From positions 1 to 23,425 of IMG/VR virus record IMGVR_UViG_3300021963_004309: 23,425 bases of DNA; one strand, given 5' to 3'. The stretch comes from a virus. A program made the position numbers and the translations under genes. Of the stretch, positions 1,312 to 23,425 are shown piece by piece. Below the pieces are notes generated by a model, which searched no databases, was not told the DNA's origin, and worked only from the letters and a program-made list of their open reading frames with translations. Numbering within the stretch: the first letter of the stretch is position 1; every line of letters begins with the position of its first letter.

Positions 1312-2177
1312 TGGCTCAGCCTAAGCCACTTCCTGCTATATTGACTGACCCGCTTTGGCTAACAGGCGGGATTAATGGTGCGTCTAAACTTCCGTACATG
1401 ACCAAAACGATTGGTCCTGTGTCAAGCGTTAGTTTGCCATCGAATTCTGTTCAGACATTTAGCAAGGTAGAGACTACGGACCAGAAAAGAAACAAGGATT
1501 ACCATGTTGGAGTTGGCAATCCGTATTTCATTGATTTTGCCAATATTGCGACTCCAGAAAGAACTGCTCGTCTTGGCAGAAAGATGTTGGATTTCGCTGA
1601 ATATAAGGCCAGAGACTGGATGGATAACATTCCAACAAACCTTGTATCTAACGCAGTAAAGGGAGAGATTAATCCGTTTAACGCTACAAGTTTTTTTGCA
1701 CTTGGTTCCGAAGCAGTAAAAGCAGCAGTTGGTGGTAGAATGACAGGTAATCTTGCCGCAGGACTTGCTGGAAAAGCAGGTGGTTCAATAATTGCAGGTA
1801 CTGCTGTCGGTGCTATAATAAACCCAACTACGCTTAAAGGTTCTACTGTTGACGAGAATCAATGGAGATTGGACTTGTACGCTGAACAACAGCGTGAACA
1901 TATGGCTAGAGTCAAAATGATTGACGAAGAATATGGCAAGAAGATGAAGGGTAAGTATGCTGGAATCGAGATGTTGATGGAAACACCGATATGGAAGCGT
2001 GATACATCCCCTCAGTTGACACCAGAAGAACGAAAGATGCAGAACTACGAAGAGATAATTGCCTCAAGATACAGAAAACTTGAAACCGCTTCTAGGGAGC
2101 GAGCAAAATTGGAAAACGGATTTTACAACGACAAGGGCGAGTTCATGTCGGCACATTTCATACGAAACTCTCAGTGA
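1311..2177 (+). CDS. Hypothetical protein with glycine-rich hydrophobic segment
   Basis: This encodes 288 residues with no family recognised. Residues about 133-170 form a Gly/Ala-rich hydrophobic stretch with GxxxG-type spacing (AGLAGKAGGSIIAGTAVGAI), like a glycine zipper or transmembrane hairpin. Residues about 185-268 are charged and helical, probably coiled-coil. The N-terminus is Pro/Ser-rich without a signal peptide. A similar Gly-rich stretch recurs in the 371-residue and giant proteins at the other end of the operon, so this may be a virion component that touches membranes, although it sits immediately before the large terminase. The start is TAATG-coupled to the basic peptide; the stop overlaps the terminase GTG start by 4 bases (GTGA). 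Confidence 0.85.
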   Translation: MAQPKPLPAILTDPLWLTGGINGASKLPYMTKTIGPVSSVSLPSNSVQTFSKVETTDQKRNKDYHVGVGNPYFIDFANIATPERTARLGRKMLDFAEYKARDWMDNIPTNLVSNAVKGEINPFNATSFFALGSEAVKAAVGGRMTGNLAAGLAGKAGGSIIAGTAVGAIINPTTLKGSTVDENQWRLDLYAEQQREHMARVKMIDEEYGKKMKGKYAGIEMLMETPIWKRDTSPQLTPEERKMQNYEEIIASRYRKLETASRERAKLENGFYNDKGEFMSAHFIRNSQ

Positions 2178-3793
2178 GCGTAGATATCAAGAACCTAACA
2201 CCGCATCCAGTACTTGTCGCTCCGACACTGGATGAAATCCGCATTCTCGCTGAGAAGAACGGAGCCGATGTCGTTGCCGAACTGCTTCAACTGCGTGAAG
2301 ATAAGATACTCGCAGAAAAAATGGACCCATATCGTCACGGATATGAGCCTCAACATTGGAAAGATGTCGATTCCATCCTAAAAACGAAGAACGAAGTTCT
2401 TGTGCTTGGTGGAAATCGTGCTGGAAAGACGGAATGGGCCGCAAAGCGTGTAATCCAAACTCTGGTCAACAAGCCAGACGCAAGAGTCTGGTGTCTTCAC
2501 ACGACAAACTCGTCTTCCATCCAGATGCAACAAAATGTGCTTTGGAAGTACATGCCGCCAGAACTGAAGAATGCTCGGAAGACCAAGGTTACAAATATCT
2601 CTTATTCGCAGAAGAACGGCTTTTCGGATAATACTTTCATTCTCCCGAATCGCTCGCAGTGCTTCTTCATGAACTACGCACAGGACAAGAAGGTCATCGA
2701 AGGTGGCGAAGTTGACCTTATCTGGTGCGATGAACTCGTTCCACTCGATTGGATTGAAACTCTCCGCTATCGTGCCATCACCAGACGAGGCAAACTCATT
2801 ACGACATTCACTCCAGTCCTCGGATACTCGCAGGTCGTTAAGGATTATGTCGCTGGATGCCGATTCAAAAAGACTCTCCCCGCAGTCCTGCTCGACAAGG
2901 ACAAGATTCATGTCGGTGGATGCCCCAAAGGGCATATGCCGTACATGGCTGATTCAATGAATTCCAACTGCGGGGTTGTATGGTTTCACTCGCAACTGAA
3001 TCCATACAATCCATTTGACCAACTTGCGGCTACTTTGGAGGGAAAGACCAGCAACGAAATAAAAATTCGAGCCTACGGCTGGGCTGAAAACACGGCTGGC
3101 TCGCAATTTCCGTCTTTCACTGACCAAAACATACTTTCTGAAGACAAAATCCCTAAAGATGGCACAAATTTCATGGTTGTAGACCCTGCTGGGGCCAGAA
3201 ATTGGTTCATGTTGTGGGTTCGGGCGGCTAGGGATGGCAATTTGTATGTTTATCGTGAATGGCCTGACATTTCAAATGGCGAATGGGCCTTGCCAAGTGA
3301 AAAAGCAGATGGGAAAATGGGTTCTGGTCAGAAAAATGGTGCTGGTCGAGGTTTGGATGACTATAAAGACCTGATTCTTGAGTTGGAAGCGGGGGAAGTG
3401 ATAGCGGAACGCTATATTGACCCTAGGGCTGGCGGGACTCAGGCTGTTTCAGCCGAAGGAGGCACTAGTTTGATTGAACTTCTTGACGATGGTGTCAAAC
3501 CCATGTATTTCCAGCCAGCCGCAGGTGTTCATATCGAGCAAGGTGTTGCAATTATAAACGACCTGTTGTTTTATAACGCCAATGAACCGCTAAGCACAAT
3601 TAACCAGCCGAGACTTTATGTTTCTGAGGAATGCAGGAATTTGATATTCTCCATGCGTGAATGGACGAACCAAGATGGAGACAAAGGTGCTTGCAAAGAC
3701 CCTGTTGACTGCCTTCGATATCTTGTCGTGATGGAACCATCCTTTGAGGGAGACAATGTGTTTAAATCAAGAGGGGAAACGCATTCTTATTGA
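2174..3793 (+). CDS. terL: Terminase large subunit
   Basis: This is the motor ATPase and headful/site nuclease that drives DNA into the prohead. It has 539 residues, a normal length. The ATPase domain shows Walker A GGNRAGKT at residues 79-86, Walker B with catalytic acidic residues in DLIWCDE (181-187), and the coupling motif TTFTP (210-214). The C-terminal RNase H-like nuclease shows its acidic set: D337 in VVDPAG, D416 in YIDPRAGG and D509/D512 in KDPVDCLRY. All motifs are intact. The start is a GTG inside GTGA, overlapping the previous gene's stop; no in-frame ATG lies closer to the N-terminus of the domain until M50, which would remove the usual upstream helix, so GTG is preferred. It works with the portal encoded next. 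Confidence 0.97.
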   Translation: MSVDIKNLTPHPVLVAPTLDEIRILAEKNGADVVAELLQLREDKILAEKMDPYRHGYEPQHWKDVDSILKTKNEVLVLGGNRAGKTEWAAKRVIQTLVNKPDARVWCLHTTNSSSIQMQQNVLWKYMPPELKNARKTKVTNISYSQKNGFSDNTFILPNRSQCFFMNYAQDKKVIEGGEVDLIWCDELVPLDWIETLRYRAITRRGKLITTFTPVLGYSQVVKDYVAGCRFKKTLPAVLLDKDKIHVGGCPKGHMPYMADSMNSNCGVVWFHSQLNPYNPFDQLAATLEGKTSNEIKIRAYGWAENTAGSQFPSFTDQNILSEDKIPKDGTNFMVVDPAGARNWFMLWVRAARDGNLYVYREWPDISNGEWALPSEKADGKMGSGQKNGAGRGLDDYKDLILELEAGEVIAERYIDPRAGGTQAVSAEGGTSLIELLDDGVKPMYFQPAAGVHIEQGVAIINDLLFYNANEPLSTINQPRLYVSEECRNLIFSMREWTNQDGDKGACKDPVDCLRYLVVMEPSFEGDNVFKSRGETHSY

Positions 3794-6304: not shown

Positions 6305-7312
6305 ATGAATACAAATCAAAACGGAGAAAACAGCACCTCCCAGCCTAATAGCGAAAGTGTTGTAGATAGAACTGGGTCTAGCCAGTTTAATGAACAAGAC
6401 CTTGCGAGTATCCTACGCAGGGACTTCGGAAACCTAGATGATTCCGAAGCAGTGGCTGAACCTGCTGATAATAATGGCTCAGAAGACCAGTTTGAGGATA
6501 CGAGTGTTAGTGAGGATTACTCGGACTCTTCGGATGAAGGCAAAGAAGTTCATTCACAGGAAGAAGAGGCTACTGATAGTGAAAATAGCGAGTTCCAGAC
6601 CAAGGGAGTACAGAAGCGTATTGACAAGTTGACCGCACTGCGAAAGCAAGCGGAAGAACAGGCAGAGAAACTTCAGAAAGAGGTGGATAACCTCAAAACC
6701 AAGGTTGAGTCGTCTAAGTCCACGGAAATTGTCGTCAAAGCCGATGAGGAAATTCCCTACGCAAATCTCAATTCGATAGCAGAAATCGAGCAAGAAATCG
6801 CTCAGGCTAGGTCGGTTAGAAGATGGTGTGAGGAAAACTCTAACGGAGTTGTCGTGCAAAATGCCGATGGAACTGAAACGGAATACTCTTACGAAGATGT
6901 AAAGCGTATTAAACTTAATGCTATGGACGCTATGGAAGAACACCTGCCGAAGAGACTGAATTATATTCAGACCAAGGCCAAGGTTGATGCCGTTGCATAC
7001 AAGGAGTATCCGTGGTTAAAGGATAAATCGTCTAAGGAACGACAAATTGCAGAATCGTTCATCAAGGCTTTCCCCCAAATCACTCGTTTCCCTGACTATA
7101 ATGTAGTCATCGGAGACTATATCCGTGGCATGCAAGCCAGAGAGAATGCTAACAAGGGCAGAAATGTCCAGAGAGCCCCTCACCAGCCCACATCTAATTA
7201 CGCTTCGCCCAGTCGGTACAAAGACAGTGCTGACCCCGATGCGACCAAGAGATATGTTAAATCTAATTCCCACACTGACCTTGCGGCAATCATAAAGTCT
7301 AAGTTCATATAA
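6305..7312 (+). CDS. Scaffolding-like head assembly protein
   Basis: This encodes 335 residues lying directly before the capsid gene, the usual place for a scaffold. The N-terminal 95 residues are disordered and strongly acidic (many D, E and S, about 40-98). A coiled-coil with regular heptads follows (VQKRIDKLTALRKQAEEQAEKLQKEVDN, about 102-130). A mixed helical region (150-285) contains PYANLNSIAEIEQEIAQAR and a YPWLKD segment, and the C-terminal 50 residues are basic (isoelectric contrast with the N-terminus), as expected for a tail that binds capsid subunits. Scaffold proteins diverge quickly, so the call relies on position, charge layout and coiled-coil. No protease motif is visible. Confidence 0.78.
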   Translation: MNTNQNGENSTSQPNSESVVDRTGSSQFNEQDLASILRRDFGNLDDSEAVAEPADNNGSEDQFEDTSVSEDYSDSSDEGKEVHSQEEEATDSENSEFQTKGVQKRIDKLTALRKQAEEQAEKLQKEVDNLKTKVESSKSTEIVVKADEEIPYANLNSIAEIEQEIAQARSVRRWCEENSNGVVVQNADGTETEYSYEDVKRIKLNAMDAMEEHLPKRLNYIQTKAKVDAVAYKEYPWLKDKSSKERQIAESFIKAFPQITRFPDYNVVIGDYIRGMQARENANKGRNVQRAPHQPTSNYASPSRYKDSADPDATKRYVKSNSHTDLAAIIKSKFI

Positions 7313-7333
7313 CACTAAACTACATATACTACT

Positions 7334-8419
7334 ATGGCAAAACTCACAGAAAGAGATTTTAACTCCGCTCCCTACATGGGTAAGCGTGAAGACCTCGCAG
7401 ACCTTATCGCCCTCGTTGACGCTAAGGATACTCCGTTCACATCTATGGCCCCGAAGGGCTCCAAGCCTGGAAATACAGTGTTCCGCTGGCAGGTTGACTC
7501 CCTTCCCGCCGCCGCCGCTTCGCAGACTGGCGTTGTCGATGGTACGGATGTTGACCCGAATGGTGCTACCATTCAGAACTTCGTTAAGGATGGTGCTACA
7601 CAGTACCGCTACGAATTGTCGAACCACATTCAGGAATTCAGAAAGTCTGTCCGTGTGTCCCCGCTTACGCTTGACATCGCTGTCATCGCTGGCGTGAAGG
7701 ACGAACTGGCTAACAATGTCGCTAAGGGCATCACGATGCTTAAGCGTGACATGGAAAAGACATTCTGCTCCAACAATCTTCCGAAGGCTGACGATGGCTC
7801 CACGCAGGGCTACGCTACCAGAGGTCTCGATTCTTGGACTCGCCCTGTCCTTCCGACTGGTGGTGTCTTCGCTAACGACAACTATCTGGCTGTCCCTACT
7901 GCTTTCCGCACAAAGGCCGCTTCGGTTGCTGGTAACGCTACAGCCATTGCGGAATCTACGACTGCTTCCTCGACCCTCACTGAAATCGTTGTTCAGGACA
8001 TCCTGACCTCCATCTACAGTGAAACTGGTCAGTTCCGCTCCTACGATGGTCTCGTTGGTCCGAACCTCAAGAGAGCCTTCACTAACCTCGTCTACACGAA
8101 TCGTACTGACACCTCGGCTTCTCAGGCCGCTATCAGAACCTTCAACAGAGACGCTTCGGCTTCCTCCTATATCTCCTCGATTGATGTCTTTGAAGGCGAT
8201 TTCGGTCAGATTCGTCTGCACCCCTCGCTCTTCCTGAAGAACAACTTCTGCGGTTATGTCCTCCCGATGGAGCATGTCGAAATCCGCTATGGCGGCTCGG
8301 TTGCTGGCGTGAAGGAACTGACTGACAATGGTGGTGGTCCTGCCCGCATGATTAACGCTATTGCGTCCGTCTGCGTGAAGAATCCGCTGGCCTTCGGTAA
8401 GTTCGACTATGTTTCGTAA
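7334..8419 (+). CDS. Major capsid protein (SU10/DUF5309-like, HK97 fold)
   Basis: This is the main shell subunit. The 361 residues carry the N-terminal pattern typical of the DUF5309/SU10 capsid group: DLADLIALVDAKDTPFTSM (about 20-38), then KGSKPGNTVFRWQVDSL. The spine-helix region (DIAVIAGVKDELANNVAKGITMLKRDMEKTF, about 113-143) and a late segment (GDFGQIRLHPSLFL) fit the HK97 fold. Codon use is the most biased in the window, favouring C- and G-ending codons and avoiding TTA, CTA and TCA, as expected for the most highly translated gene. The start is preceded by TACTACTATG without a Shine-Dalgarno sequence; the same ten bases mark the first gene of the window. Confidence 0.95.
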   Translation: MAKLTERDFNSAPYMGKREDLADLIALVDAKDTPFTSMAPKGSKPGNTVFRWQVDSLPAAAASQTGVVDGTDVDPNGATIQNFVKDGATQYRYELSNHIQEFRKSVRVSPLTLDIAVIAGVKDELANNVAKGITMLKRDMEKTFCSNNLPKADDGSTQGYATRGLDSWTRPVLPTGGVFANDNYLAVPTAFRTKAASVAGNATAIAESTTASSTLTEIVVQDILTSIYSETGQFRSYDGLVGPNLKRAFTNLVYTNRTDTSASQAAIRTFNRDASASSYISSIDVFEGDFGQIRLHPSLFLKNNFCGYVLPMEHVEIRYGGSVAGVKELTDNGGGPARMINAIASVCVKNPLAFGKFDYVS

Positions 8420-12476: not shown

Positions 12477-13490
12477 ATGGCACAAATCAACAAAGGCTAT
12501 AACTACACAACAAGCGGGGCTAACTCTTATGTTACCGCTGGCAACCTAAATCAGCATGTGGCATTGGCTACGCTTGCTGGTGGTGCTATATCCGAACAAA
12601 CCGCTAATTCAGCGTCTAATGATACTGATGTAATCCTTATTGGCACTGGGACTGGATTGTCTACTGCCATATGGAAACAGACAAAGGCTCAGTTTACTAA
12701 CACAATAAACTCTGCAAGCATAAGCGTCAATGCACTGTCTGTACAGGACGCAGAACTTGACAGCATTACTATAAACGGCTCTTACGATGAAGATGTTTAT
12801 TTCAATGTAGGAAATGCGGCTATATACAACTCAAGCACGACCAGTCCTTATGTGATGTTTGGCTATGACAACATTACTCATGCACTTCCTGTTGGTCATA
12901 CTGGCAATGTGTTTAGGCATCACGGCATTTCGACATTGTTCACAGACCCTTATAATCCTGTTGACCTGAATGTTGCTGGCACAGGTCATACTGTGACTAT
13001 TCAAGGTGATTTAAATGTTACAAAGGATTTAAATGTCACACGAAATGTAAGTCAAGGCGGGGTTGTTTTGGATTTGTTTAAGCGTTATGGTGCTAAGAAT
13101 GGAGTTCTGTTTGCTGGTGGAATTACCGAACTTTACAAAACGCAAGACCTTGACATCCCTGCTGATGAAACTTGGGTGTTTTCTTTTGATTTTAAGTTTA
13201 AATCCAACCAACTAGGTACTGCAACAATAACTGCATATCTTGAAAAGGCTACATATTCAGATGTAAGTGTAGCAACTTGGGATGTTATTATATACGGACT
13301 ACAGCATCCATATGTGTATCTTACATCTAACCTTGCTCTTACAAGAACAAGCCTTGCTTCTCTTTCAAAAAAGTTAAAGTTCGTGGTATCTGGACTTTCC
13401 ACATACAATACTGCTACTGAACATATGTACTCTATTTCTTATGTCCGCATTAAAACGGCACAACTAACAACTGATAATTCTATACTCTAA
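12477..13490 (+). CDS. Tail fibre / receptor-binding protein
   Basis: This encodes 337 residues. The N-terminal 100 residues contain helical and strand patches with Ala/Thr/Ser-rich sequence and an ALSVQDAELDSITINGS segment. The middle (about 120-195) is beta-structured and ends in tandem short repeats (GDLNVTKDLNVTRNV) like the triple-beta-helix shafts of fibres. The last 100 residues (WVFSFDFKFKSN through YSISYVRIKT) look like a compact beta-sandwich tip. It resembles a receptor-binding protein more than an enzyme; no catalytic motif is visible. It begins one base after the nozzle stop, and its own stop overlaps the next start (TAATG). Confidence 0.8.
   Translation: MAQINKGYNYTTSGANSYVTAGNLNQHVALATLAGGAISEQTANSASNDTDVILIGTGTGLSTAIWKQTKAQFTNTINSASISVNALSVQDAELDSITINGSYDEDVYFNVGNAAIYNSSTTSPYVMFGYDNITHALPVGHTGNVFRHHGISTLFTDPYNPVDLNVAGTGHTVTIQGDLNVTKDLNVTRNVSQGGVVLDLFKRYGAKNGVLFAGGITELYKTQDLDIPADETWVFSFDFKFKSNQLGTATITAYLEKATYSDVSVATWDVIIYGLQHPYVYLTSNLALTRTSLASLSKKLKFVVSGLSTYNTATEHMYSISYVRIKTAQLTTDNSIL
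13008..13040 (+). repeat. Tandem 15-base repeat in the fibre shaft
   Basis: GATTTAAATGTTACA (13008-13022) recurs as GATTTAAATGTCACA (13026-13040), one base different and 18 bases apart, so the reading frame is kept. It encodes DLNVT twice (DLNVTKDLNVT) and continues with a weaker third turn (RNVSQ). It fits a repeating strand in a trimeric fibre shaft. Confidence 0.7.
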
Positions 13491-14605
13491 TGGCTGAATA
13501 TGATTCTGTAGGTGGTGGTGCTTCTGGTGGAGCAACTGGGGCAATGGCTGGTGCTGTCGGCGGTTACGCTGTAGGTGCTAAAATAGGTGCTGTTGGTGGA
13601 CCTGTTGGCATGGCTATTGGAGCAGTTCTTGGTGGTCTTTTTGGCTCCAAGAAAACCAAGGTTCCTAGACCTCCTACCTATGGTCAGTTGATGAATAGAA
13701 ACCTTGACGCACAAGAGAGCATTCAGGATAGATTGCTTACCCTTGAAGGAAAGTATAGAGGACAATACCAAGGGTTGCAGGAGCGTACATTGCAGTCCCA
13801 ACTCTATGGTGGCAATGGCAACCAAGGATACATCAACATGCTCAATGAGTCCAATGAAGCCCTACAAGGCGTTCAGGCTAGGGCTGGGGCTGGTTACATG
13901 AATACGCTTGGCGGGCTTGCTGGACAGGCCAGAAACATGCTCCAAAGCGACCAAGCAAGAGCAATGCAACAGTCCTTGATGTATCAGGCTCAAAATGACT
14001 TGGCAATGGGTTCTTCGCTTAATGCCGACGAACAGCGTCAGGCTTTCCAAAGTGCCAATGCTGGCATGGCAATGCGAGGTCTTGGAGGTAGACAGGGTGT
14101 AGCCGCAGGTGTCCTATCCAACTACGGAATGGGGCAAAATAGGCTCAACCAGCGTAGGCAGTTTGCTGGCGGTATTCTCAGTCAGGATTCTGCTCTTCAG
14201 TCTGCGGCTCTTCAGATGGGTGCTGGTGCTATGAATATGTATAATGCTGGTGGCACATTCATGGGTCAGGCTAACGCCATGCTTGGACAGTATCAGCCTC
14301 AAATCTTCCAGCCTGAATCCCAGATGGGGGCTCAAGCACAAGGAATGAAGTACCAGCATGAAATGGGCGTTGCCAGAAGCAGTATGCAACAGCAACAACA
14401 GTTGCTTAGTAGCATGGGCCAGTTCGGTTCATTCATGATTCAAAACCCTAATCTGTGGCAAACACCTCCCATTGTTGCTAATACCAATCAATACGCTAAT
14501 CCTATTGGCCCGACAATGAGTGGAGGGTTTGATGCTGGAGGTCAAGGCCCAGCATTTAGCAGTCCATATTTTGGTGGTGGCACTGCATACGGAAATTTTA
14601 GATAA
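13490..14605 (+). CDS. Glycine-rich internal virion (ejection) protein
   Basis: This encodes 371 residues and is likely a pore- or channel-forming protein stored in the head and ejected with DNA, comparable in role to T7 gp14 or P22 gp7/gp20. The N-terminus (residues 8-52) is almost pure Gly/Ala with hydrophobic residues and GxxxG spacing, ending at a basic patch (FGSKKTKVPRPP, 51-62): a glycine-zipper membrane hairpin. The remainder is Gln/Met/Asn/Gly-rich and helical (QAESIQDRLLTLEGKY-like heptads, then many AQARNMLQSDQARAMQQ-type segments). There is no signal peptide. It stands next to two further probable internal proteins, an arrangement typical of ejection-protein triplets. The ATG is coupled to the preceding stop (TAATG). 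Confidence 0.8.
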   Translation: MAEYDSVGGGASGGATGAMAGAVGGYAVGAKIGAVGGPVGMAIGAVLGGLFGSKKTKVPRPPTYGQLMNRNLDAQESIQDRLLTLEGKYRGQYQGLQERTLQSQLYGGNGNQGYINMLNESNEALQGVQARAGAGYMNTLGGLAGQARNMLQSDQARAMQQSLMYQAQNDLAMGSSLNADEQRQAFQSANAGMAMRGLGGRQGVAAGVLSNYGMGQNRLNQRRQFAGGILSQDSALQSAALQMGAGAMNMYNAGGTFMGQANAMLGQYQPQIFQPESQMGAQAQGMKYQHEMGVARSSMQQQQQLLSSMGQFGSFMIQNPNLWQTPPIVANTNQYANPIGPTMSGGFDAGGQGPAFSSPYFGGGTAYGNFR

Positions 14606-14611
14606 TAATTT

Positions 14612-16894
14612 ATGGCAATATTTGGACAATATCAAGGCGGTGATGCCTTCAATGTGGCTGGCAATATGGACGCTGTGCTTAAACAGCAAGCGGCTACTAA
14701 CCAGTCTATGTTGGATGCTGTATCCAAGTTCAATCAAGCGAGAGAGGAGATGACCACACTGCAACAGCAGACTGGGGCTATCATGTCTCAGTATGGTGTT
14801 GACGAGAAAGGGAAGCCCGATGATACGGCTCCTAAGTATGTTCACGACCTGTTCAAGAATGTTAACAAGGAAGGTGGCATTGCCAATCTTTCCAGAACCC
14901 AGTTGGTTGCTGGACTTAAGGCTTACGAAACAGGAACTCAGGTTGACGCTCAAAGGCAGAACCAAGCGTTTAATGCGGAGAAACTCAGACAGGCTAGACT
15001 TACAAATGACATCACGGAGATGCAAATGCAAGCCGCTCTTAAGGCTGAAAAGGAAGCACAGAGAATAAGAGAGGCATATAATGACCCTGAACTGAAGAAA
15101 GAAATTGAAGCCATTGCAAAGGAAAAGTTAGAAAATGTAAAAGAAGTAACAAAGGAAATAAAAGTAAAAGGTGAAAAGATTAAGTTTACGGCAGAAGAGA
15201 TTTCTCCGTACCTAGATAGGCTGAACAAAGCAAAAGCAGAAGGCGACAAGAATGCAGAAGCCGAAGCATATGATGAAATCGGAAAACTGCTTCATGGCAA
15301 AACAAGCAAAGGCCGTGAAACAAACATAAACATATTAGACCAACTTGATGAAAATGGGATGTTGATTACCGAAGAGGTTAAAAACCCAGATTATATCCCA
15401 TATCGTTCCGTAAGAGATGCGGCTAAACTTACTGAGCGTAAGGTTGGTCAAAACATAAATCCAACAATACCTGAAGCACTGCTTAGAGGCATCGCTGATG
15501 AGCAACTTAAAAAGTACAATCTTGCAACCGCTGGAAGAGAAGAAAACGAACAGGCAAGGCTTGCTCTTGAGATTCAACAAAACTCTTTGGTTACTGGTGG
15601 CAGACCTGTTGATAATACAAGGGTTGGAGATGTCTTAGGTTTACTTCCAAAGTCTAATGCACCCAAGAAAACATTCGTCTGGAACAATCCAGAAGCACAA
15701 GCATATCAAGTAAAGATTGACAACATTGACGAACAGATTGCCAATCTCAAGGATTCTATAGCGGTAAACAAGGGAGGTAATACTCAGCAATTTTATGCTG
15801 GTCTTGGAGGAATGTCTATACCAAGAGGAGATGAAAGAGCCAACACAAAGGCTGTTCTTTCCGCAACTCTTCAAATAAAGCAACTTGAGCAACAGAAGAA
15901 AGCACTTGACAGCAAACTTCAGTCTGTTGAAGATAAGACAAGAATTACATCTGTAAAAGCCGCTCAATCGGTTGCTTCTTATTCTGGCGGGGAAGTCCAA
16001 GCGTCTGAAGACACTTGGAAGCCTGTAATTGAAACTGTTCAAAAGAAATATCAGCGTACTCTTGACGAGCAAACAAACGATGAGTACTTGATAATGAAGA
16101 ACTACTTTGAGAAAACTGGTGGAGTCCCTCCTACATTTACAAAAGAAGCGTTTTACGCATCCAAGGGCATCCAGCGTCCTATGGTAGTTCAGGCTGGTGG
16201 TGGATATCTATACGCACAAGGCCCAGACGGAAAGGGCCACTTCCTTAAGGATGAGTCTGCTCAATCTAGCCAAATGAGCATTACCGACCAAGAGAAGATG
16301 TGGAAGGCTGGTGAATTCTCCAAGGCCAGAAACCTCAACGGCCTTACTGTCAATGGTTATACATTCAGAGGTGAGGTTCGTGTTGGGGATATTGACCAAG
16401 CAAATAAGGTTAAGGATGGCGTTTTCAAGACAACAAGAGCCTTGAGTGCCTTGGACTCGCTTATTGACATCGCAGACAACAAGGGATTGTTTGAAAAACT
16501 GTTGCCTACAGAAGTTTCTGGTATTGCTCAGGCTTTGGCTAATACAGTCCAAGCGGCTAATAGAACAGAAGTTGGTGGTTCTGGTGCATGGTCTAATCAG
16601 GACCAAGCAAACATTGACAAGATTATTAGAGACCCTTCCAAGGGGCATAACGCTATCTTTACTTCTCAGACTGTAGCCTCTCTCAAGGCTTATAGAGCCA
16701 GACTTGAACAATCTATGGTTGACAGCGGGAGCATTTATGGTTTTGCTTTTGAAAGAAATGGGGGTCAGGGAAGCATGTCTTCCCAAGTGGGTCAGTTCCG
16801 AATTCAGTATGCCACTGGCATGGCTAAGTTTGGAGACCACGCCCAAGCCCTTGAATACGCAAAACAATCCCTGAACTTTGATGCCAACGAATAA
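14612..16894 (+). CDS. Internal virion protein, long coiled-coil
   Basis: This encodes 760 residues. The function is inferred from position, and no enzyme motif is seen. It is helical overall: residues 108-185 form a long charged coiled-coil (AEKLRQARLTNDITEMQMQA and following heptads), residues about 362-450 contain a second one (IKQLEQQKKALDSKLQSVED), and the C-terminal 170 residues (ALSALDSLIDIADNKGLFEKLL, then GAWSNQDQANIDKIIRDPSKG) look globular. Such proteins assemble around the portal inside the head and help build the trans-envelope channel. From about residue 160 to 500 codons shift to A-ending (AAA, GTA, ATA, GCA), unlike both ends, suggesting a replaced or recently acquired middle. 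Its last 14 bases overlap the next gene's start. Confidence 0.8.
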   Translation: MAIFGQYQGGDAFNVAGNMDAVLKQQAATNQSMLDAVSKFNQAREEMTTLQQQTGAIMSQYGVDEKGKPDDTAPKYVHDLFKNVNKEGGIANLSRTQLVAGLKAYETGTQVDAQRQNQAFNAEKLRQARLTNDITEMQMQAALKAEKEAQRIREAYNDPELKKEIEAIAKEKLENVKEVTKEIKVKGEKIKFTAEEISPYLDRLNKAKAEGDKNAEAEAYDEIGKLLHGKTSKGRETNINILDQLDENGMLITEEVKNPDYIPYRSVRDAAKLTERKVGQNINPTIPEALLRGIADEQLKKYNLATAGREENEQARLALEIQQNSLVTGGRPVDNTRVGDVLGLLPKSNAPKKTFVWNNPEAQAYQVKIDNIDEQIANLKDSIAVNKGGNTQQFYAGLGGMSIPRGDERANTKAVLSATLQIKQLEQQKKALDSKLQSVEDKTRITSVKAAQSVASYSGGEVQASEDTWKPVIETVQKKYQRTLDEQTNDEYLIMKNYFEKTGGVPPTFTKEAFYASKGIQRPMVVQAGGGYLYAQGPDGKGHFLKDESAQSSQMSITDQEKMWKAGEFSKARNLNGLTVNGYTFRGEVRVGDIDQANKVKDGVFKTTRALSALDSLIDIADNKGLFEKLLPTEVSGIAQALANTVQAANRTEVGGSGAWSNQDQANIDKIIRDPSKGHNAIFTSQTVASLKAYRARLEQSMVDSGSIYGFAFERNGGQGSMSSQVGQFRIQYATGMAKFGDHAQALEYAKQSLNFDANE

Positions 16895-19800
16895 CGACCC
16901 GCTTTTCCAGACAGGTAAGCAATTTCTAAAGACACAAGCAAGCCAAGCAACACCTGCTGGCATGCCTATCGGAGAAGCCCCTGTTCAACAGGAAGGCGGT
17001 TCTAGTTATGCTGATATGGCTAACGGACAAGGCAATCACGCTTGGTCTCAATACGCAAATGTCGCTGATGTTAAGGGGCCGTCTTCGCTCAAGGCTCAGC
17101 AGATAACAAGCCTCAGCGATGAGCAGTTGATGGAGGCAATCAAGGCTCCGCTTAGCGGAGAAGAGGTTGCCATGAAGATGAGTGCCATCCAAGAGTATGG
17201 AGGCGAGATTGATGCGTCTACCATCTCCAAGGAGGAGTTTATCGCATATGATGCATGGCGTGAAAAACAGAACTTCAACTTCATGGGTGCTGTCGCTGAA
17301 GGTGCATTGATGGCTGTTAAAGATATCGGCAAGGGTGTTTATTCTGCTGGTACTGACTGGAAGAAACTTGGCTTGGCTGTTGGACTTTCCGCTGTGTCTA
17401 CTCCTGTAGTTGGGTTTGGCGTTGCGTATGGCTCTTCCATACTTGAAGGTGCGGCTAGAGGAACAAGAGATTTGGGAGGTCTTGCTGTTATGGCGGCTAA
17501 CCATCCTGGGTCTCCTCTTTATAGAATGTTCGTTAATCCCACGAATGACATGGACAAGAAGTATGAAGACTTCTTGGACCTTGCTCGTTGGAATTCTCAG
17601 TCGGAAAAGATTCTTGCTGGCAAGAGCAATGCCTTGATGCCAGATAAGGAAGTGTACGAGAAACTTTTCGGCAAGGCGTTTGGAAATCAAGTGGATGAAT
17701 TCATTGGCGTGAACAAGGAGTTGGCTACAGCCGCTTCCTACTTCCTAGACCCAACGACGCTGTTGATGTTTGCTCCTGCTGGTCTTGGAGAAAAGATATT
17801 CGGCAAAGCCGCCGCCGCCGCCATCAAGTCTGGAGAGGCTGGAAATACACTTGGACATGCGATGTCCGCTAAGTCCGCAAGAAATGCATTCAAGGCAAGT
17901 TGGCTCAACTCGCTTGGTGAAAACCTCAGAAAGTTCTCCGATGTAACGACACAGCCTATTGATGCTATGTTCGATAACATAACAAGAAATGCTGAGGCAG
18001 TTACTGGTGCTAAGACATCTATTTCCCATGGAGGAACTGTTCGTGTAACAAGAACTGCGGCTGGTCATGGAGGCACTAGAGGTCCGACTTCTGTTGTGCA
18101 TGCTGGTATGGGTGCGTTGGGTATGTATTCGCTGTTCCACATTCCCTATGCATTGCCGATTACATCCGTGTATGCTGGACTAAAGGGCGTTGGCCTCATT
18201 GGTGATACCATACTTGATATAGGCAGAAGGGGCGTTCAGAACAGTTCCACAGTCATGGGTAAGGCTATAAAGGCATCGCTTCCGATTACGATGTACATGC
18301 AAGACCTAGCAACCACCACAATCCATGGTGGCGTTTATGGTGGCGTTATCGGATATGCCGCAAGCGGTCAAGAAGGTGCGGCTGGGGGTATTGGAACAGG
18401 TGCGGCTCTTGGTGCTGTAGGTCACAATGTCGGTTATGCTTATGGCACATTCAGCGGTCAGTTTGCAAGAGAGGCTTTGTATAAGGAATTTGACACACAC
18501 TTTAACACACTTAAGGAAAAGGGTCATATCCTCAAACACGACAGGGTTCGTGAGTTTGTTGAAAGAATTCGTTCAGACCATGGAGACGAAGAGGCAATTC
18601 GTGCTATCTCGCATGTGATGGCTCTTGAGAAGAGCAAGAATACCGCTGTGGCTTACATGGGTTACAGCGACTTCCTTGGTGCTTTGGCTAATGACCCCAA
18701 GATGTGGGAATCTGTCATTGGAGAGAACGGACCTGAAAGAAGACTTTCTCCTACTGGAGAGATGTTGCACAGAGCCATGAAGGGTGTTGTTGAAATGGAT
18801 GAGGGAGGAAACATCGTTAGAGATGAAAACGGAGACCCCATTCTGCTAGGAAGGCGTGAGCGTGTTGAGTCGCTTAGAGTTACAAAAGAAGACAAGGCAC
18901 TTATTGGACCGATGCCTGAACAAGAGGGAGGCATAGTTAATCCCAATCAAGCGGCTTGGAATGGGCTGTTCCTTGACGGACGAGGAAATAGTAGCCCTAT
19001 TAAAATTTTTACAGACGGAGAAACAGGAAAGAATCACATCATAATCAACACAGACATGTTGGTTACTCAGCGTGATAAGTACGGCAATCCAATCTACGAT
19101 ACAGCGTTCCGTGAAGGCAGAAGAGCCAACATGGACAAATCTCAAGACATCAGGGTTTCAGAGACAGTGGAAGGCCCAAGAGTCAGAAGACAGGTGCTAG
19201 CAGAAGGAGTTGATGAATACGGAATACCTCTCAAGTCCAAGAAGGAGCGTACAGTTGCAGTGCCTGACGAAAACCTGATTGGTCCTATGCCCGCTGAAAC
19301 AAGGATTGTCACTAGAAAGACCTCTGGAGATATCGGTCCTGTTGCTCCTGTTGAGGTGATTACTGGCAGAAGAATGGTTCAGGCCAAGACCGCTCCGATT
19401 GGAGAGTTGTGGCATGCAATGAATAGTGCCTACAGAAAGATTAACCATGGGCAGGACATTACGAATGCAGTCCGTGATTGGCTGATTGGTTCTGGAGGAA
19501 AGGCTGGAAGAGCGTTCTCCGACAGAAAGCAGACTGTCAAGTTCATGCATGAAGTCTACAGAGCCATTGGCGGTGACAATCGTGACACAGGGTACAATGG
19601 TGCTTGGATGAAGGCCATCAACGAGTTTGAACAGACTGGCGAAATCAAGTCCCCAGAAGTTCAGAGAGCGTTCAGGGATTTCATTGAGGAACTTGGCGAA
19701 GCCATGTTTATCGGATGGGAAAGTGGAAAGCCGTTTGACTACATCTACAAGGGCGGTGACTTGGGCTTTGCCAGAAACCTTGTCGAAAGCGTCAAGGATA

Positions 19801-22800
19801 CATTCTTCAACCGCTCGCTTCGTGAGGCTACCAACCTTGGTGCTGACATCAGAAGCAAGGACTTCTTTATCAATTGGTTCAAGGAAGCAAAGGACGGACG
19901 CAAGTTCAGATTCGACCCTATCCTTGAAAGCACATTCAATGACCTTATCCGTTGCTACAGGGATAATGAGATGAAGGATGCTGGTCGTAAGAGGATTGAC
20001 CTCACGACTCTCAACTCCGCTCAACTCAAGAGACAAGCAGAAATATATGGATTTGAAGACAGGATTGAAATGGATGCCAATGGCGAATGGAGAGTAAAGT
20101 CCGACGAAAAGTACCATGCTGAACAGTTTGTCAAGGCTCAGGCGATGGGAATGGAGATGGCTCATGCATTCCAGACCAATCCTGACCTCTTCAATGGAGT
20201 CGATGTTCAGATTGTCACCAATGGTGATGCTAGACTTGGCACTGTAGAGGCTAACTTTGCGGCACTGGACGCTTCCAGCCGTGACCCTAACTCTTCCACA
20301 GCCGACACGCTATCTCAGCGTAGAGGGGCTTTCCTGTTCCAGAACGCAGACTTTGCAGATGTCGGCATAGGTATTGACGAAATGCTGTCGGCACAGGCTG
20401 AGCAGGTTTACACCAGTGGGGTTTATGCACCACGCACAAAGGGTAGTTTTGGTGCTAGAGGTAGACCCAGAACTACGCCTACTGGCAAACTTCAGGCTGA
20501 CTTGCTTGAAGCGATGAAGACAGGCAAGAAGTTGATTATCAGAGGCGTTCCTAATGAGAAGTTGTTTGCCATCATCCAGAAGTATGTTCCAAAGAGCGTA
20601 TCCGATAACATCAGAACACTTGCTCCTCTTATCGTTGATGGTGGCATTTCCGCTGATAATGTGCTTAGGGGCCAGTATCATGGCTTTACTCAAGTCGATA
20701 AGGATGGCGTAAAGCGTAGCAGAAAGACTGGAGATGCGTTCAACGCAAGAGAAGTGACATTCGTTCCTTATGACTTGGAACTAAGTTGGACGCTTGACAA
20801 CATCAAGAACCCTCAAGTCAACTACGAGCGGGCTCACTTGGCTTACAATGTTAAGTCCATGGATGTCGATGCGTTCAATAGACGAATTCATATCCTTTGG
20901 AACCAGAGCCCAGAACTACAAGGTCTCTATGGAGATGTCCAACAGTTCATAGACCACGCCTACAGAACAATTGACGAGTACAGCGGTAGCAAGGAAATCC
21001 CTGCCGTGGAGTTCTTTGGTGAAGGTGAGACCGCAAGACAAAGGCGTAAGTATGTCGTTGCGGCTATCGGTGCTTCCCCAAACATTGCACACAAGTTTGC
21101 GTACAGCCTTGCTGAAGCAGAATGGCATTCCTATCAGCATCACGACAGGACTGCCGAGCAAAACCACCCTTGGCACAGACTGAGACTTGACGGACTTACT
21201 GGCCTCCAATCTATTGATGGTGAAAGAACGAGAATGCGTGTCAACGAAACGCAATACTATAGAGCAATGGTTCCTACTCCTACAACGGAAACTGGAGCAA
21301 TGTGGGTAGATAGTTCTGGAAATCCTGCAAAATATCAACCTTCCGATGCACTTAGACCTAGCAAAATGTATAATACAATTGGAGAGGAAGTAACTTCTCT
21401 TCAGCAAAACATTGAAAGACTTGATAGGGAAATCGCTATAAAAGACAAGTTTGGAAGGCGTGGAGGCAATCCTTCTTACAGTTGGTATAAGGAGCAGAAA
21501 AGGAATGCACAAAACAGACTTGATGAAATAAATAATGCTAGGTCGTCTGGCGAAGGAAACAATCAGGCCATTTTAACTCAACCTTCAGATTCTACTGGAG
21601 AGTCCAATATGACTCCTGATTTGAGTAAGATTCCAAATATGAGTCCTCAGAAACTTGGTCGTAGATACGACATGAACTCTGAGAAGTGGAACTCTGGATT
21701 TATCGGTAGAGCCGCAGAAGAGAATCCGACTTGGGTTGATAGAGGAACTCCTGTTGGAAAGATTGAAACCCTTAAGGATAAAATGGTTGAGTTCAAGATA
21801 GGCGGTCACAAGTCCAATGTAATAACACTTGAGATATTGACAAAGAAGGGTGACATGGTTTCTTTTGTTTACGCAGAACAATCTAAGGATGGCAAGAGAT
21901 TGACGCATGTTGCAGTGCATACTGCTCCTCACTGGAGACAAAGAGGATATGGAGACATTGCTTACTCTGAGTTAATTGAAAGAGCCAGAGCCTTGGACTT
22001 TAAGGCTTTTGATGGAGAGATTATCAATTCTAAGGCACTTCCCATGCGTATGCGTGATAAGCGTTTTGGAGTTGGAGGTTCCTTTATTGTTGGACCAGAC
22101 TGGGAAACTATAGTCGATGTGGCTACACAGGCTGAAGTTGTCAGAAGACTTGACAACTCCATTGACCTTGGAGCGGAACACGAAGGAGTTCGTGTCAGTT
22201 CGCCTATTATTCCTTCTGCATTCTACCAGACAGCCGAGATTGGCGATGGCCCTATTCCTATCAATGTGGAGACGATGAAGGACTTTAACATGTCTACTTC
22301 GGACAAGCCTTATAATGCCGATGCGGTTTCTAAGCGTTTGAACGACCCGCTCTCCCTTGTCAAGTCTCTTAACAAAGAAAGAGCATTTAAGCCGTCTAAG
22401 TTCAAGGCATTGTTCCAGCCCGCTGATACATTTGGGGCTAAGTCTGAAGCCGAGGCCCAGTTCCTTAGAAGTAACTACAAGTGGGCAAACGAAGAAGCAA
22501 AAGACATATTTGAGTCTGAAGCCTTAAAGCGTTTTGTAAATCAGTTCCGTGTTGGACAGGAACCTGTCACTGTAGTCAAGTGGGCGTTGGAGGAATGGAA
22601 GCGTGTGCATGGAGATGTTGATGCGTATAACGCTCAGTTTGTTACTGGAAGACCTGTTGTTGTTATTGGTACACATGGCACTCCTAGTGCAGAATTGGTA
22701 AAGGTAATGAAGTTTGATTCTGATAAATTGGGTTCCAATACTACCGCTCAGACAGCAAAACGAGGCACATTCCACGCAGGTACACAAGAAACATCGTCAA

Positions 22801-23425
22801 GATATGGAGTGATGCATTCTGAAATAACCGACAAGAGAGCGAAACTTTCAGAAGCAAGAAAGTTGCTTGAGGACAATTCCATTTCCTCTTCAGAATTAAT
22901 ACAAAGGGTGTCAGATGTCAGCGACTTCTTGGACTCAAACGGATGGAGCGATGAAAATGAAAAAAGAAGCAGAAGTTACTCAAAGTCAGTTTTTCAAAAA
23001 AATGTTGAATACTTGATTGATGGCAAATGGGCTCAGGCAAATATGCCAGATGTAGACAAAAGTTACACTCCGCAAAAAGAGCGTCAAGCAAGAACTCAGC
23101 AATTCTTGGATTATACTAATGGATTGCTATATGATGCACTTAAGTTTGAAGAGGCGTTTGAGGAAAACAACAGACAACAAGTAAGGTCTGTTATTGGTTT
23201 CCAAAATCCGCTTGTTGTTGACCTTAAAGATACCGCTTGGCAAGCAACCAGCAGAGCAGAGTTGATGGATTCTGCCAAGGAAAAAGGACATGACGGATTG
23301 ATAGTCCTTAACACATATGATGGATTGTTTTTTGGTATGATGCCTCATGCTGACAATCTTTATGTTGTCCTTAAGGGTGGAGAAAACAGAAACATTGCCA
23401 CAATTGACTCTTCCCTTACAGGCAA
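16881..23425 (+). CDS. Giant polyvalent-type protein with GNAT-like and ADP-ribosyltransferase-like domains (partial, 3' end beyond window)
   Basis: This is an uninterrupted frame of at least 2181 residues starting MPTNNDPLFQTG, overlapping the previous gene by 14 bases and still open at the window edge. Hydrophobic or Gly-rich segments lie at residues 164-190, 411-445 and 483-522, suggesting membrane contact. Residues 530-1600 are mostly helical with charged linkers and contain an imperfect repeat ending LIGPMP (674-679 and 799-804). Residues about 1635-1746 look like a GNAT acetyltransferase: HVAVHTAPHWRQRGYGDIAY carries the R/QxxGxG acetyl-CoA motif (1686-1691). From about 1925 the sequence follows the ADP-ribosyltransferase pattern of polyvalent proteins: GTHGTP (H1932), KFDSDKLGSNT, RGTFHAGTQETSSRYG (Y1975), QNPLVVD (2109) and GHDGLIVLN (2136). 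It is probably packaged and injected with the DNA; the enzyme activities are inferred from motifs only. Confidence 0.9.
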   Translation, partial: MPTNNDPLFQTGKQFLKTQASQATPAGMPIGEAPVQQEGGSSYADMANGQGNHAWSQYANVADVKGPSSLKAQQITSLSDEQLMEAIKAPLSGEEVAMKMSAIQEYGGEIDASTISKEEFIAYDAWREKQNFNFMGAVAEGALMAVKDIGKGVYSAGTDWKKLGLAVGLSAVSTPVVGFGVAYGSSILEGAARGTRDLGGLAVMAANHPGSPLYRMFVNPTNDMDKKYEDFLDLARWNSQSEKILAGKSNALMPDKEVYEKLFGKAFGNQVDEFIGVNKELATAASYFLDPTTLLMFAPAGLGEKIFGKAAAAAIKSGEAGNTLGHAMSAKSARNAFKASWLNSLGENLRKFSDVTTQPIDAMFDNITRNAEAVTGAKTSISHGGTVRVTRTAAGHGGTRGPTSVVHAGMGALGMYSLFHIPYALPITSVYAGLKGVGLIGDTILDIGRRGVQNSSTVMGKAIKASLPITMYMQDLATTTIHGGVYGGVIGYAASGQEGAAGGIGTGAALGAVGHNVGYAYGTFSGQFAREALYKEFDTHFNTLKEKGHILKHDRVREFVERIRSDHGDEEAIRAISHVMALEKSKNTAVAYMGYSDFLGALANDPKMWESVIGENGPERRLSPTGEMLHRAMKGVVEMDEGGNIVRDENGDPILLGRRERVESLRVTKEDKALIGPMPEQEGGIVNPNQAAWNGLFLDGRGNSSPIKIFTDGETGKNHIIINTDMLVTQRDKYGNPIYDTAFREGRRANMDKSQDIRVSETVEGPRVRRQVLAEGVDEYGIPLKSKKERTVAVPDENLIGPMPAETRIVTRKTSGDIGPVAPVEVITGRRMVQAKTAPIGELWHAMNSAYRKINHGQDITNAVRDWLIGSGGKAGRAFSDRKQTVKFMHEVYRAIGGDNRDTGYNGAWMKAINEFEQTGEIKSPEVQRAFRDFIEELGEAMFIGWESGKPFDYIYKGGDLGFARNLVESVKDTFFNRSLREATNLGADIRSKDFFINWFKEAKDGRKFRFDPILESTFNDLIRCYRDNEMKDAGRKRIDLTTLNSAQLKRQAEIYGFEDRIEMDANGEWRVKSDEKYHAEQFVKAQAMGMEMAHAFQTNPDLFNGVDVQIVTNGDARLGTVEANFAALDASSRDPNSSTADTLSQRRGAFLFQNADFADVGIGIDEMLSAQAEQVYTSGVYAPRTKGSFGARGRPRTTPTGKLQADLLEAMKTGKKLIIRGVPNEKLFAIIQKYVPKSVSDNIRTLAPLIVDGGISADNVLRGQYHGFTQVDKDGVKRSRKTGDAFNAREVTFVPYDLELSWTLDNIKNPQVNYERAHLAYNVKSMDVDAFNRRIHILWNQSPELQGLYGDVQQFIDHAYRTIDEYSGSKEIPAVEFFGEGETARQRRKYVVAAIGASPNIAHKFAYSLAEAEWHSYQHHDRTAEQNHPWHRLRLDGLTGLQSIDGERTRMRVNETQYYRAMVPTPTTETGAMWVDSSGNPAKYQPSDALRPSKMYNTIGEEVTSLQQNIERLDREIAIKDKFGRRGGNPSYSWYKEQKRNAQNRLDEINNARSSGEGNNQAILTQPSDSTGESNMTPDLSKIPNMSPQKLGRRYDMNSEKWNSGFIGRAAEENPTWVDRGTPVGKIETLKDKMVEFKIGGHKSNVITLEILTKKGDMVSFVYAEQSKDGKRLTHVAVHTAPHWRQRGYGDIAYSELIERARALDFKAFDGEIINSKALPMRMRDKRFGVGGSFIVGPDWETIVDVATQAEVVRRLDNSIDLGAEHEGVRVSSPIIPSAFYQTAEIGDGPIPINVETMKDFNMSTSDKPYNADAVSKRLNDPLSLVKSLNKERAFKPSKFKALFQPADTFGAKSEAEAQFLRSNYKWANEEAKDIFESEALKRFVNQFRVGQEPVTVVKWALEEWKRVHGDVDAYNAQFVTGRPVVVIGTHGTPSAELVKVMKFDSDKLGSNTTAQTAKRGTFHAGTQETSSRYGVMHSEITDKRAKLSEARKLLEDNSISSSELIQRVSDVSDFLDSNGWSDENEKRSRSYSKSVFQKNVEYLIDGKWAQANMPDVDKSYTPQKERQARTQQFLDYTNGLLYDALKFEEAFEENNRQQVRSVIGFQNPLVVDLKDTAWQATSRAELMDSAKEKGHDGLIVLNTYDGLFFGMMPHADNLYVVLKGGENRNIATIDSSLTG
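18822..19292 (+). repeat. Imperfect internal repeat in the giant protein
   Basis: A block reading DENGDPILLGRRER then LIGPMP (codons 18822-18917) is echoed by DEYGIPLKSKKER then LIGPMP (19212-19292). A third DKYGNPIYD lies between them. Similar GEMLHRAM and GELWHAMN segments flank the blocks. The repeat is visible at protein level only and may reflect an old duplication of a linker or small domain. Confidence 0.5.

What the first reader, a model, noticed from the sequence alone, without database searches (positions are those of the whole stretch)
22650..23425. ADP-ribosyltransferase-like domain at the C-terminus of a giant probable virion protein
The motifs run in the order expected for ADP-ribosyltransferases of phage polyvalent proteins: a His in GTHGTP, FDSDKLGSNT, an F-H-A...SSRY segment, NPLVVD, and a G-H/Y-D-G-hydrophobic-hydrophobic-x-N ending. 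About 130 residues of charged sequence separate the second and third motifs, more than usual. If packaged, this enzyme would enter the cell with the DNA and could modify host polymerase, translation or defence proteins before any phage gene is expressed. The domain is cut by the window edge, so the final strands cannot be judged.
Basis: partly seen in the sequence, partly recalled or inferred. Interest (0 to 1): 0.8.

Follow-up and report, generated by a model that had tools for sequence, protein, structure and literature searches.

The report
Divergent ADP-ribosyltransferase in giant phage protein
A bacterial virus with a short-tail-type gene order carries, in the middle of a roughly 4,400-residue protein that is probably packed in its particle, a divergent enzyme domain of the kind that attaches ADP-ribose to host molecules; such enzymes are known from other phages, but the standard Pfam model misses this branch.

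Summary
The motifs are real, and they form an ADP-ribosyltransferase (ART) domain. A profile built only from other phages' ARTs finds the window protein at E = 3.5e-20 over residues 1922-2168, with nothing in shuffled or reversed controls. AlphaFold2 gives the expected strand order. A naturally short-loop relative matches PARP1/PARP2, NatT and diphtheria-toxin ART folds. The predicted H-Y-D active site (H1932, Y1975, D2138) is conserved and the core is under strong purifying selection.

Two details of the finding are wrong. The domain is not C-terminal: a second contig overlaps the window end by exactly 127 identical bases, a typical assembly-graph overlap, and extends the protein to about 4,417 residues; relatives show both halves in one open frame. 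Also, the final strands lie inside the window. The long insert is helical, variable, and present in other phage ARTs too.

This is a divergent relative of the ART-PolyVal family (PF18760). Pfam's own model does not score it, so I call it a new variant of a known kind. The gene closes the late structural block; in the relative phiM5 that slot encodes particle-detected internal virion proteins. Packaging and ejection are likely but unproven. The target is unknown.

The parts
16881..23425 (+). Part inside the window of the giant gene (ATG at 16881; the frame also has a TTG at 16878). The frame runs off the window and continues in L003 to a stop at L003:6834-6836; about 4,417 aa in total.
   Evidence: ORF list; exact 127-base overlap of the window end with L002/L003, frame continues; full-length counterparts in single contigs L007, L008, L009, L011
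22653..23423 (+). ADP-ribosyltransferase-like domain (residues 1925-2181, ATG numbering)
   Evidence: ART profile without window-family members, E 3.5e-20; fold models and structure searches
22656..22685 (+). Strand 1 with GTHGT; candidate catalytic H1932 at 22674-22676
   Evidence: His invariant in 16 of 16 aligned ARTs; modelled strand 28-35; aligned with the HGT of the cholix ART domain
22764..22808 (+). Strand 2 and following helix, GTFHAGTQETSSRYG; candidate catalytic Y1975 at 22803-22805, F1964 at 22770-22772
   Evidence: Tyr in 15 of 16 sequences; F to Y spacing of 11 matches the two-Tyr spacing of the cholix alignment
22821..23168 (+). Variable helical insert between strand 2 and strand 3 (domain residues 83-198)
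   Evidence: Helices in the model, low pLDDT; 16-26 identical residues in the 100-residue block; dN/dS about 0.2 against 0.05-0.07 in the core for the closer pairs
23178..23240 (+). Strands 3 and 4 with the invariant NPLVvDlK segment
   Evidence: Invariant columns; modelled strands 202-209 and 212-222
23286..23321 (+). Strand 5, GHDGLIVLNTYD; candidate catalytic D2138 at 23292-23294
   Evidence: Asp invariant in 16 of 16; the GYDG Asp of the Roseovarius podovirus prototype ART sits at the equivalent place; modelled strand 241-249
23352..23408 (+). Strands 6 and 7, DNLYVVLKGGENRNIATID; the QIKS/QIRS ending of typical relatives is replaced by NIA, HIA or HLA
   Evidence: Alignments; modelled strands 260-266 and 274-278
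21846..22004 (+). Weak GNAT acetyltransferase-like block (residues 1657-1709 in TTG numbering), upstream of the ART
   Evidence: Pfam PF00583, E 0.11, below cut-off; conserved in L007-L009, not alignable in L011
7334..8419 (+). Context: SU10-type major capsid protein
   Evidence: PF17236, E 2.4e-41; phrog_1328
2174..3793 (+). Context: terminase large subunit
   Evidence: PF03237; phrog_2
12477..16894 (+). Context: three genes directly before the giant gene; by gene order they match the internal-virion-protein block of LUZ24-like podoviruses
   Evidence: Gene order compared with phiM5 and KIT05; no detectable sequence match between the proteins

Best explanation
The region is a divergent H-Y-D-type ADP-ribosyltransferase domain, a sister branch of the ART-PolyVal family. 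It sits in the middle of an about 4,417-residue polyvalent-type protein of a LUZ24/SU10-like podovirus. Most likely the protein is made late, packed in the head as an internal (ejection) protein, and enters the host with or ahead of the DNA. The ART domain would then bind NAD+ and move ADP-ribose onto a host macromolecule before phage genes are expressed. H1932 and Y1975 would hold the NAD, and D2138 would act as the acidic residue. The variable helical insert between strands 2 and 3 is the natural candidate for target selection. Shown here by computation: frame continuity, homology, predicted fold, residue conservation, purifying selection, gene position. Inferred: catalysis, packaging, ejection, timing, role of the insert. 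Unknown: the target.
For: Profile of other phages' ARTs finds the window protein at E 3.5e-20, residues 1922-2168, none in controls. Window-family profile against the PF18760-like set: hhalign probability 99.8, E 1.9e-27 over strands 3 to 5. Mixed profile against PDB sequences: cholix ART domain E 0.0013, PARP12 E 0.28, over the H-to-Y half. It also finds the prototype polyvalent ART of Roseovarius podovirus 1 at E 0.0048. PF18760 itself scores the Helicobacter prophage relative at E 2.2e-24, and that relative was found with the window segment by plain tblastn, E 3e-4. Models: window, pLDDT 75, pTM 0.66; L136, pLDDT 80, pTM 0.79. Structure matches: a protein named PolyVal ADP-ribosyltransferase, probability 1.00; PARP1/2, probability up to 0.98, NatT 0.77, diphtheria toxin 0.51. 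H, D and NPLV invariant in 16 of 16, Y in 15 of 16. Core dN/dS 0.05-0.07 in close pairs. Late-gene position, followed by a holin-like gene; phiM5 proteins in that slot were detected in particles.
Against: Pfam PF18760 gives no hit to the window or its closest relatives. The window model has no significant PDB match, probably because of the low-confidence helical insert; the short-loop model's best PDB E-value is only 0.011. The QIKS/QIRS ending of typical members is missing. L136 has Phe where Tyr is expected, with Tyr one residue earlier. No enzyme or particle data exist. No sequence match was found between the giant and the phiM5 or KIT05 virion proteins. Some members of the A3 profile were collected with patterns from the window family, so one search is not fully independent.
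Confidence: 0.72

Rival explanations
1. The domain keeps the ART fold but has lost transferase activity and now only binds NAD or ADP-ribose, or serves as a structural spacer in the giant protein.
For: The QIKS ending is lost and the end of the last strands varies. ARTs with lost activity are known in the superfamily (general knowledge). The window-L007 core is less constrained (dN/dS about 0.28; near-saturated estimate).
Against: All three residues of the H-Y-D triad stated for this family are kept in the window and its four closest aligned relatives, and the core is under strong constraint in close pairs.
Confidence: 0.2
2. The giant protein is not packaged. It is made in the infected cell and the ART acts late, for example on host defence or in competition with other phages.
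For: No proteome data for this virus. Some phage ARTs act after infection (T4 ModA and ModB, as described in PMC9503650).
Against: The gene is the last of the structural block and directly precedes a holin-like gene. The same slot encodes particle-detected internal virion proteins in phiM5. Polyvalent phage proteins are typically encoded with virion genes (PMC5512222).
Confidence: 0.15
3. The domain is another small alpha/beta effector fold found in polyvalent proteins, such as the PBECR/MuF-C nuclease type, and only looks like an ART.
For: PF18760 misses it, and polyvalent proteins carry several such folds (PMC5512222).
Against: The best PDB hits of the short-loop model are ART-superfamily structures, and none of those listed is a BECR nuclease. 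Significant profile hits are to ARTs.
Confidence: 0.04
4. The join of the two contigs is chimeric, and the domain really is near the C-terminus in this virus.
For: The overlap is only 127 bases, the k-mer length of a common assembler setting.
Against: The overlap is exact and in frame. L007, L008, L009 and L011 each hold the same order ART - phrog_3170 domain - C-terminal part in one contig, aligned along the whole length.
Confidence: 0.02

Closest known systems
ART-PolyVal family (Pfam PF18760; Tox-ART-HYD2 clade of Iyer et al. 2017, PMC5512222), prototype Roseovarius Plymouth podovirus 1 vRNAP CBX87992.1
   Same: Strand order, H in strand 1, Y after strand 2, D in strand 5, NPLV-type segment in many members, location in a giant late-gene-encoded phage protein
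   Different: Below detection by the Pfam model; THGT instead of YHGT; FHxGxQxTSxxYG around the Tyr; no QIKS ending; no vRNAP domain detected in the giant protein
Giant protein of the Helicobacter prophage BK070148 (about 3,735 aa)
   Same: ART internal to a giant phage protein; NPLV, DGVI and the following N..D shared; found directly by tblastn
   Different: Canonical YHGS, short loop, QIKA ending, scores PF18760 at 2.2e-24
T4 Alt (head-packaged, injected ART)
   Same: Proposed logic: virion-borne ART acting on the host at once
   Different: Alt has an R-S-E active site and belongs to another clade (PMC5512222); this one is H-Y-D
PARP and diphtheria-toxin-like ARTs
   Same: Fold by structure search; HGT and downstream Tyr
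   Different: H-Y-E active site there (general knowledge); invariant Asp in strand 5 here
Internal virion proteins of LUZ24-like podoviruses (phiM5 gp28-31, KIT05 gp19-21)
   Same: Position at the end of the structural gene block
   Different: Far shorter; no detectable sequence similarity; no ART annotated

Membership tests
ADP-ribosyltransferase superfamily | Split beta-sheet ART fold | tested here: met
   Predicted only; best PDB probability 0.98 but E-values 0.011-0.012
ADP-ribosyltransferase superfamily | NAD-dependent transferase or NADase activity | not testable with these tools
   Needs purified protein
ART-PolyVal / Tox-ART-HYD2 | Active site H (strand 1), Y (strand 2), D (strand 5) | tested here: met
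   H34, Y77, D240 of A1 invariant in the close family; 16/16, 15/16, 16/16 in the wider set; definition from PMC5512222
ART-PolyVal / Tox-ART-HYD2 | Score above the Pfam PF18760 gathering cut-off | tested here: not met
   No match in the window, L003, L007, L008, L009, L011 or L130 at E up to 10. It is therefore filed as a divergent relative, not as a PF18760 member
ART-PolyVal / Tox-ART-HYD2 | Profile-level homology to accepted members | tested here: met
ART-PolyVal / Tox-ART-HYD2 | QIKS/QIRS-type ending on the last strand (typical of the members seen here) | tested here: not met
   Window family has NIA, HIA or HLA at that place
Polyvalent proteins (Iyer et al. 2017) | Several unrelated enzymatic domains in one polypeptide | tested here: inconclusive
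   ART clear; GNAT-like block weak (E 0.11); two conserved domains of unknown function, phrog_3170 and phrog_2563
Polyvalent proteins (Iyer et al. 2017) | Encoded among virion genes | tested here: met
   Terminase, capsid and other virion genes upstream, holin-like gene downstream
Polyvalent proteins (Iyer et al. 2017) | Present in virions and delivered to the host | not testable with these tools
   Only synteny with particle-detected proteins of phiM5
T4 Alt/VIP2 clade | R-S-E active site | tested here: not met
   H and D at the strand 1 and strand 5 positions
PARP / diphtheria toxin (H-Y-E) | Catalytic Glu in the fifth strand | tested here: not met
   No conserved Glu; Asp invariant

The most novel reading that the evidence does not exclude
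A separate subfamily of head-packaged H-Y-D ARTs, specific to a lineage of environmental LUZ24/SU10-like podoviruses, in which the fast-changing helical insert between strands 2 and 3 acts as an exchangeable target-recognition module, so that each phage lineage ADP-ribosylates a different host factor at the moment of ejection.
Probability: 0.2. Interest if true: 0.6.

Novelty: new variant of a known kind. Interest (0 to 1): 0.4.

Why it matters
Virion-borne ARTs are thought to be a common first move of phages against their hosts, but the standard model misses this branch, so they are probably undercounted in environmental podoviruses. The family offers a conserved catalytic core with a strongly variable insert, which makes the question of how phage ARTs choose targets testable.

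Tried and rejected
Pfam scans of the domain and of the whole giant protein gave no ART hit, and PHROGs gave no ART-named hit. tblastn of the window part of the giant against 50,697 phage records found nothing at 1e-5. The window model against PDB gave no significant match, so a natural relative with a short loop (L136) was modelled instead. phiM5 and KIT05 virion proteins were compared with the giant and its upstream genes: no match. The giant proteins that share only the phrog_3170 domain (L013-L045) were checked with two ART profiles and show none; they serve as a specificity control and suggest that the ART is an optional module. The phrog_3170 region has no match in PDB sequences. D2158 (strand 6) was considered as the third catalytic residue; D2138 is preferred because the prototype ART has GYDG in strand 5 and no clear equivalent of D2158.

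Full report
Where the domain sits. The window is a whole IMG/VR record of 23,425 bases. Its last frame, from ATG 16881, runs off the end. A scan with the domain found one contig, IMGVR_UViG_3300021962_000750, whose first 127 bases are identical to the last 127 of the window. An exact 127-base end overlap is what neighbouring edges of a k = 127 assembly graph give (general knowledge). The frame continues without a stop for 2,236 more residues and ends at L003:6834-6836, so the protein has about 4,417 residues. Four other virus contigs (L007, L008, L009, L011) hold the whole protein in one frame, aligned from end to end, which supports the join. The finding's 'C-terminus' is therefore the middle of the protein; the most conserved region follows it, a domain with HDFFGH...GEENAW...TRGQNSW that matches phrog_3170. 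Residue numbers here use ATG 16881 as residue 1 unless stated (one less than TTG numbering).

The motifs are real. The motifs are in frame at the stated place. The region is conserved at 48% identity in L007 and 34-36% in L008, L009 and L011, with further members L012, L130 and L136. Conservation is in two blocks, strand 1 to the Tyr, and NPLV to the last strand. The stretch between them is the least conserved (16-26 identical residues in the 100-residue block) and varies in length from a few residues (L012, L136) to about 245 (L011). In close pairs the core has dN/dS 0.05-0.07 and the insert about 0.2; for the window-L007 pair synonymous sites are near saturation and the values (0.28 and 0.85) are rough.

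It is an ART. Pfam's ART-PolyVal model (PF18760) does not score the window or its closest relatives. However, plain tblastn of the window segment against phage records found one protein, of a Helicobacter prophage (E 3e-4), and that one scores PF18760 at 2.2e-24. A pattern scan with the family alignment brought in further relatives, several of which reach the PF18760 cut-off (L131, L134, L137, L142). The window-family profile against this set gives hhalign probability 99.8, E 1.9e-27 over strands 3 to 5. A profile of this set alone, without any window-family sequence, finds the window protein at residues 1922-2168 with E 3.5e-20; none of 100 shuffled or 5 reversed giant proteins scores. A caveat is that part of the set was collected with short patterns taken from the window family. 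The combined profile also reaches solved ART sequences (cholix ART domain E 0.0013, PARP12 0.28, aligned through HGT and the Tyr) and the prototype polyvalent ART of Roseovarius Plymouth podovirus 1 (E 0.0048).

Predicted fold. AlphaFold2 with 15 aligned sequences gives mean pLDDT 75 and pTM 0.66: strands 28-35, 64-68, 202-209, 212-222, 241-249, 260-266 and 274-278, with a poorly determined helical insert at 83-198. Against predicted viral structures it matches a protein named PolyVal ADP-ribosyltransferase (probability 1.00, E 1.5e-3) and ART-PolyVal-like proteins. Against PDB it has no significant match. The relative L136, which naturally lacks the insert, was modelled next (pLDDT 80, pTM 0.79). 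Its best PDB matches are PARP1 and PARP2 catalytic domains (probability up to 0.98, E 0.011), followed by the NatT toxin, PARP14, diphtheria toxin, Tpt1 and tankyrases, nearly all members of the ART superfamily. The E-values are moderate, but the hit list is consistent.

Active site. Iyer et al. 2017 (PMC5512222) describe polyvalent ARTs as having H in strand 1, Y in strand 2 and D in strand 5. Here these are H1932 (GTHGT), Y1975 (SSRYG) and D2138 (GHDG). H and D are invariant in 16 aligned sequences and Y in 15. The prototype has YHGT, DYA and GYDG at these places. The family differs from typical members by THGT for YHGT, by FHxGxQxTSxxYG, and by losing the QIKS/QIRS ending. I therefore place it as a divergent relative of PF18760, not as a member by Pfam's criterion.

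Virion context. The window has a terminase, an SU10-type capsid protein and further late genes; the giant gene is the last of this run and is followed by a holin-like gene. The capsid protein is related to those of phiM5 and Vibrio KIT05. In phiM5 the genes at the end of the structural block are annotated as internal virion proteins detected in the particle proteome, and KIT05 has a similar layout. There is no sequence match between these proteins and the giant, so this is an argument from position only. Internal virion genes in this lineage are described as divergent and mosaic (PMC10386132).

Mechanism and rivals. The best reading is a head-packaged, ejected ART acting on a host target early in infection, as proposed for polyvalent ARTs in general. 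What is shown is homology, fold prediction and conservation; catalysis, packaging, ejection and target are inferred or unknown. The main rivals are an inactive NAD-binding remnant (0.2) and a non-packaged protein (0.15); another fold (0.04) and a wrong contig join (0.02) are unlikely.

Novelty. ARTs in giant phage proteins are known (PMC5512222, PMC9503650). New here are a subfamily missed by the Pfam model and its variable insert. The ART seems to be an optional module: giant proteins that share only the phrog_3170 domain (L013-L045) show no ART by these profiles. Interest is moderate.

Noticed in passing
window 23299-23425 and L003:1-127: Exact 127-base overlap with IMGVR_UViG_3300021962_000750; the two IMG/VR records are almost certainly adjacent pieces of one phage.
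   Followed up: yes
L003:300-900 (giant residues about 2240-2440): Highly conserved domain HDFFGH...GEENAW...TRGQNSW (phrog_3170, unknown function, no Pfam or PDB match), with tblastn matches in some 200 phage records, mostly Mycobacterium phages, and in many environmental giant proteins.
   Followed up: partly
L003:1190-1440: Second conserved block, phrog_2563 (WLNAFDTVLPSMYDKFGFEAVARL); by eye it resembles the end of a GNAT-like domain. Unknown function.
   Followed up: no
window about 18900-19350 and L003 about 5525-5605: Short repeated motif IGPx(x)P in the giant protein: 5 copies against 0.06 expected in shuffles, 3-5 copies in each of four relatives, mostly in one N-terminal and one C-terminal low-conservation region; none in the other late proteins tested. 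Could be a processing or docking site.
   Followed up: partly
window 21645-22052 and L011:5952-6389: The GNAT-like block upstream of the ART is conserved in L007-L009 but not alignable in L011, suggesting module exchange.
   Followed up: partly
L145 (IMGVR_UViG_3300044614_001486): A contig with two adjacent giant frames holding the phrog_3170 domain and several canonical YHGT/YHGS ART-like segments.
   Followed up: no
window 7016-8275 (-): A 419-aa open frame antisense to the capsid gene; probably a by-product of codon usage.
   Followed up: no
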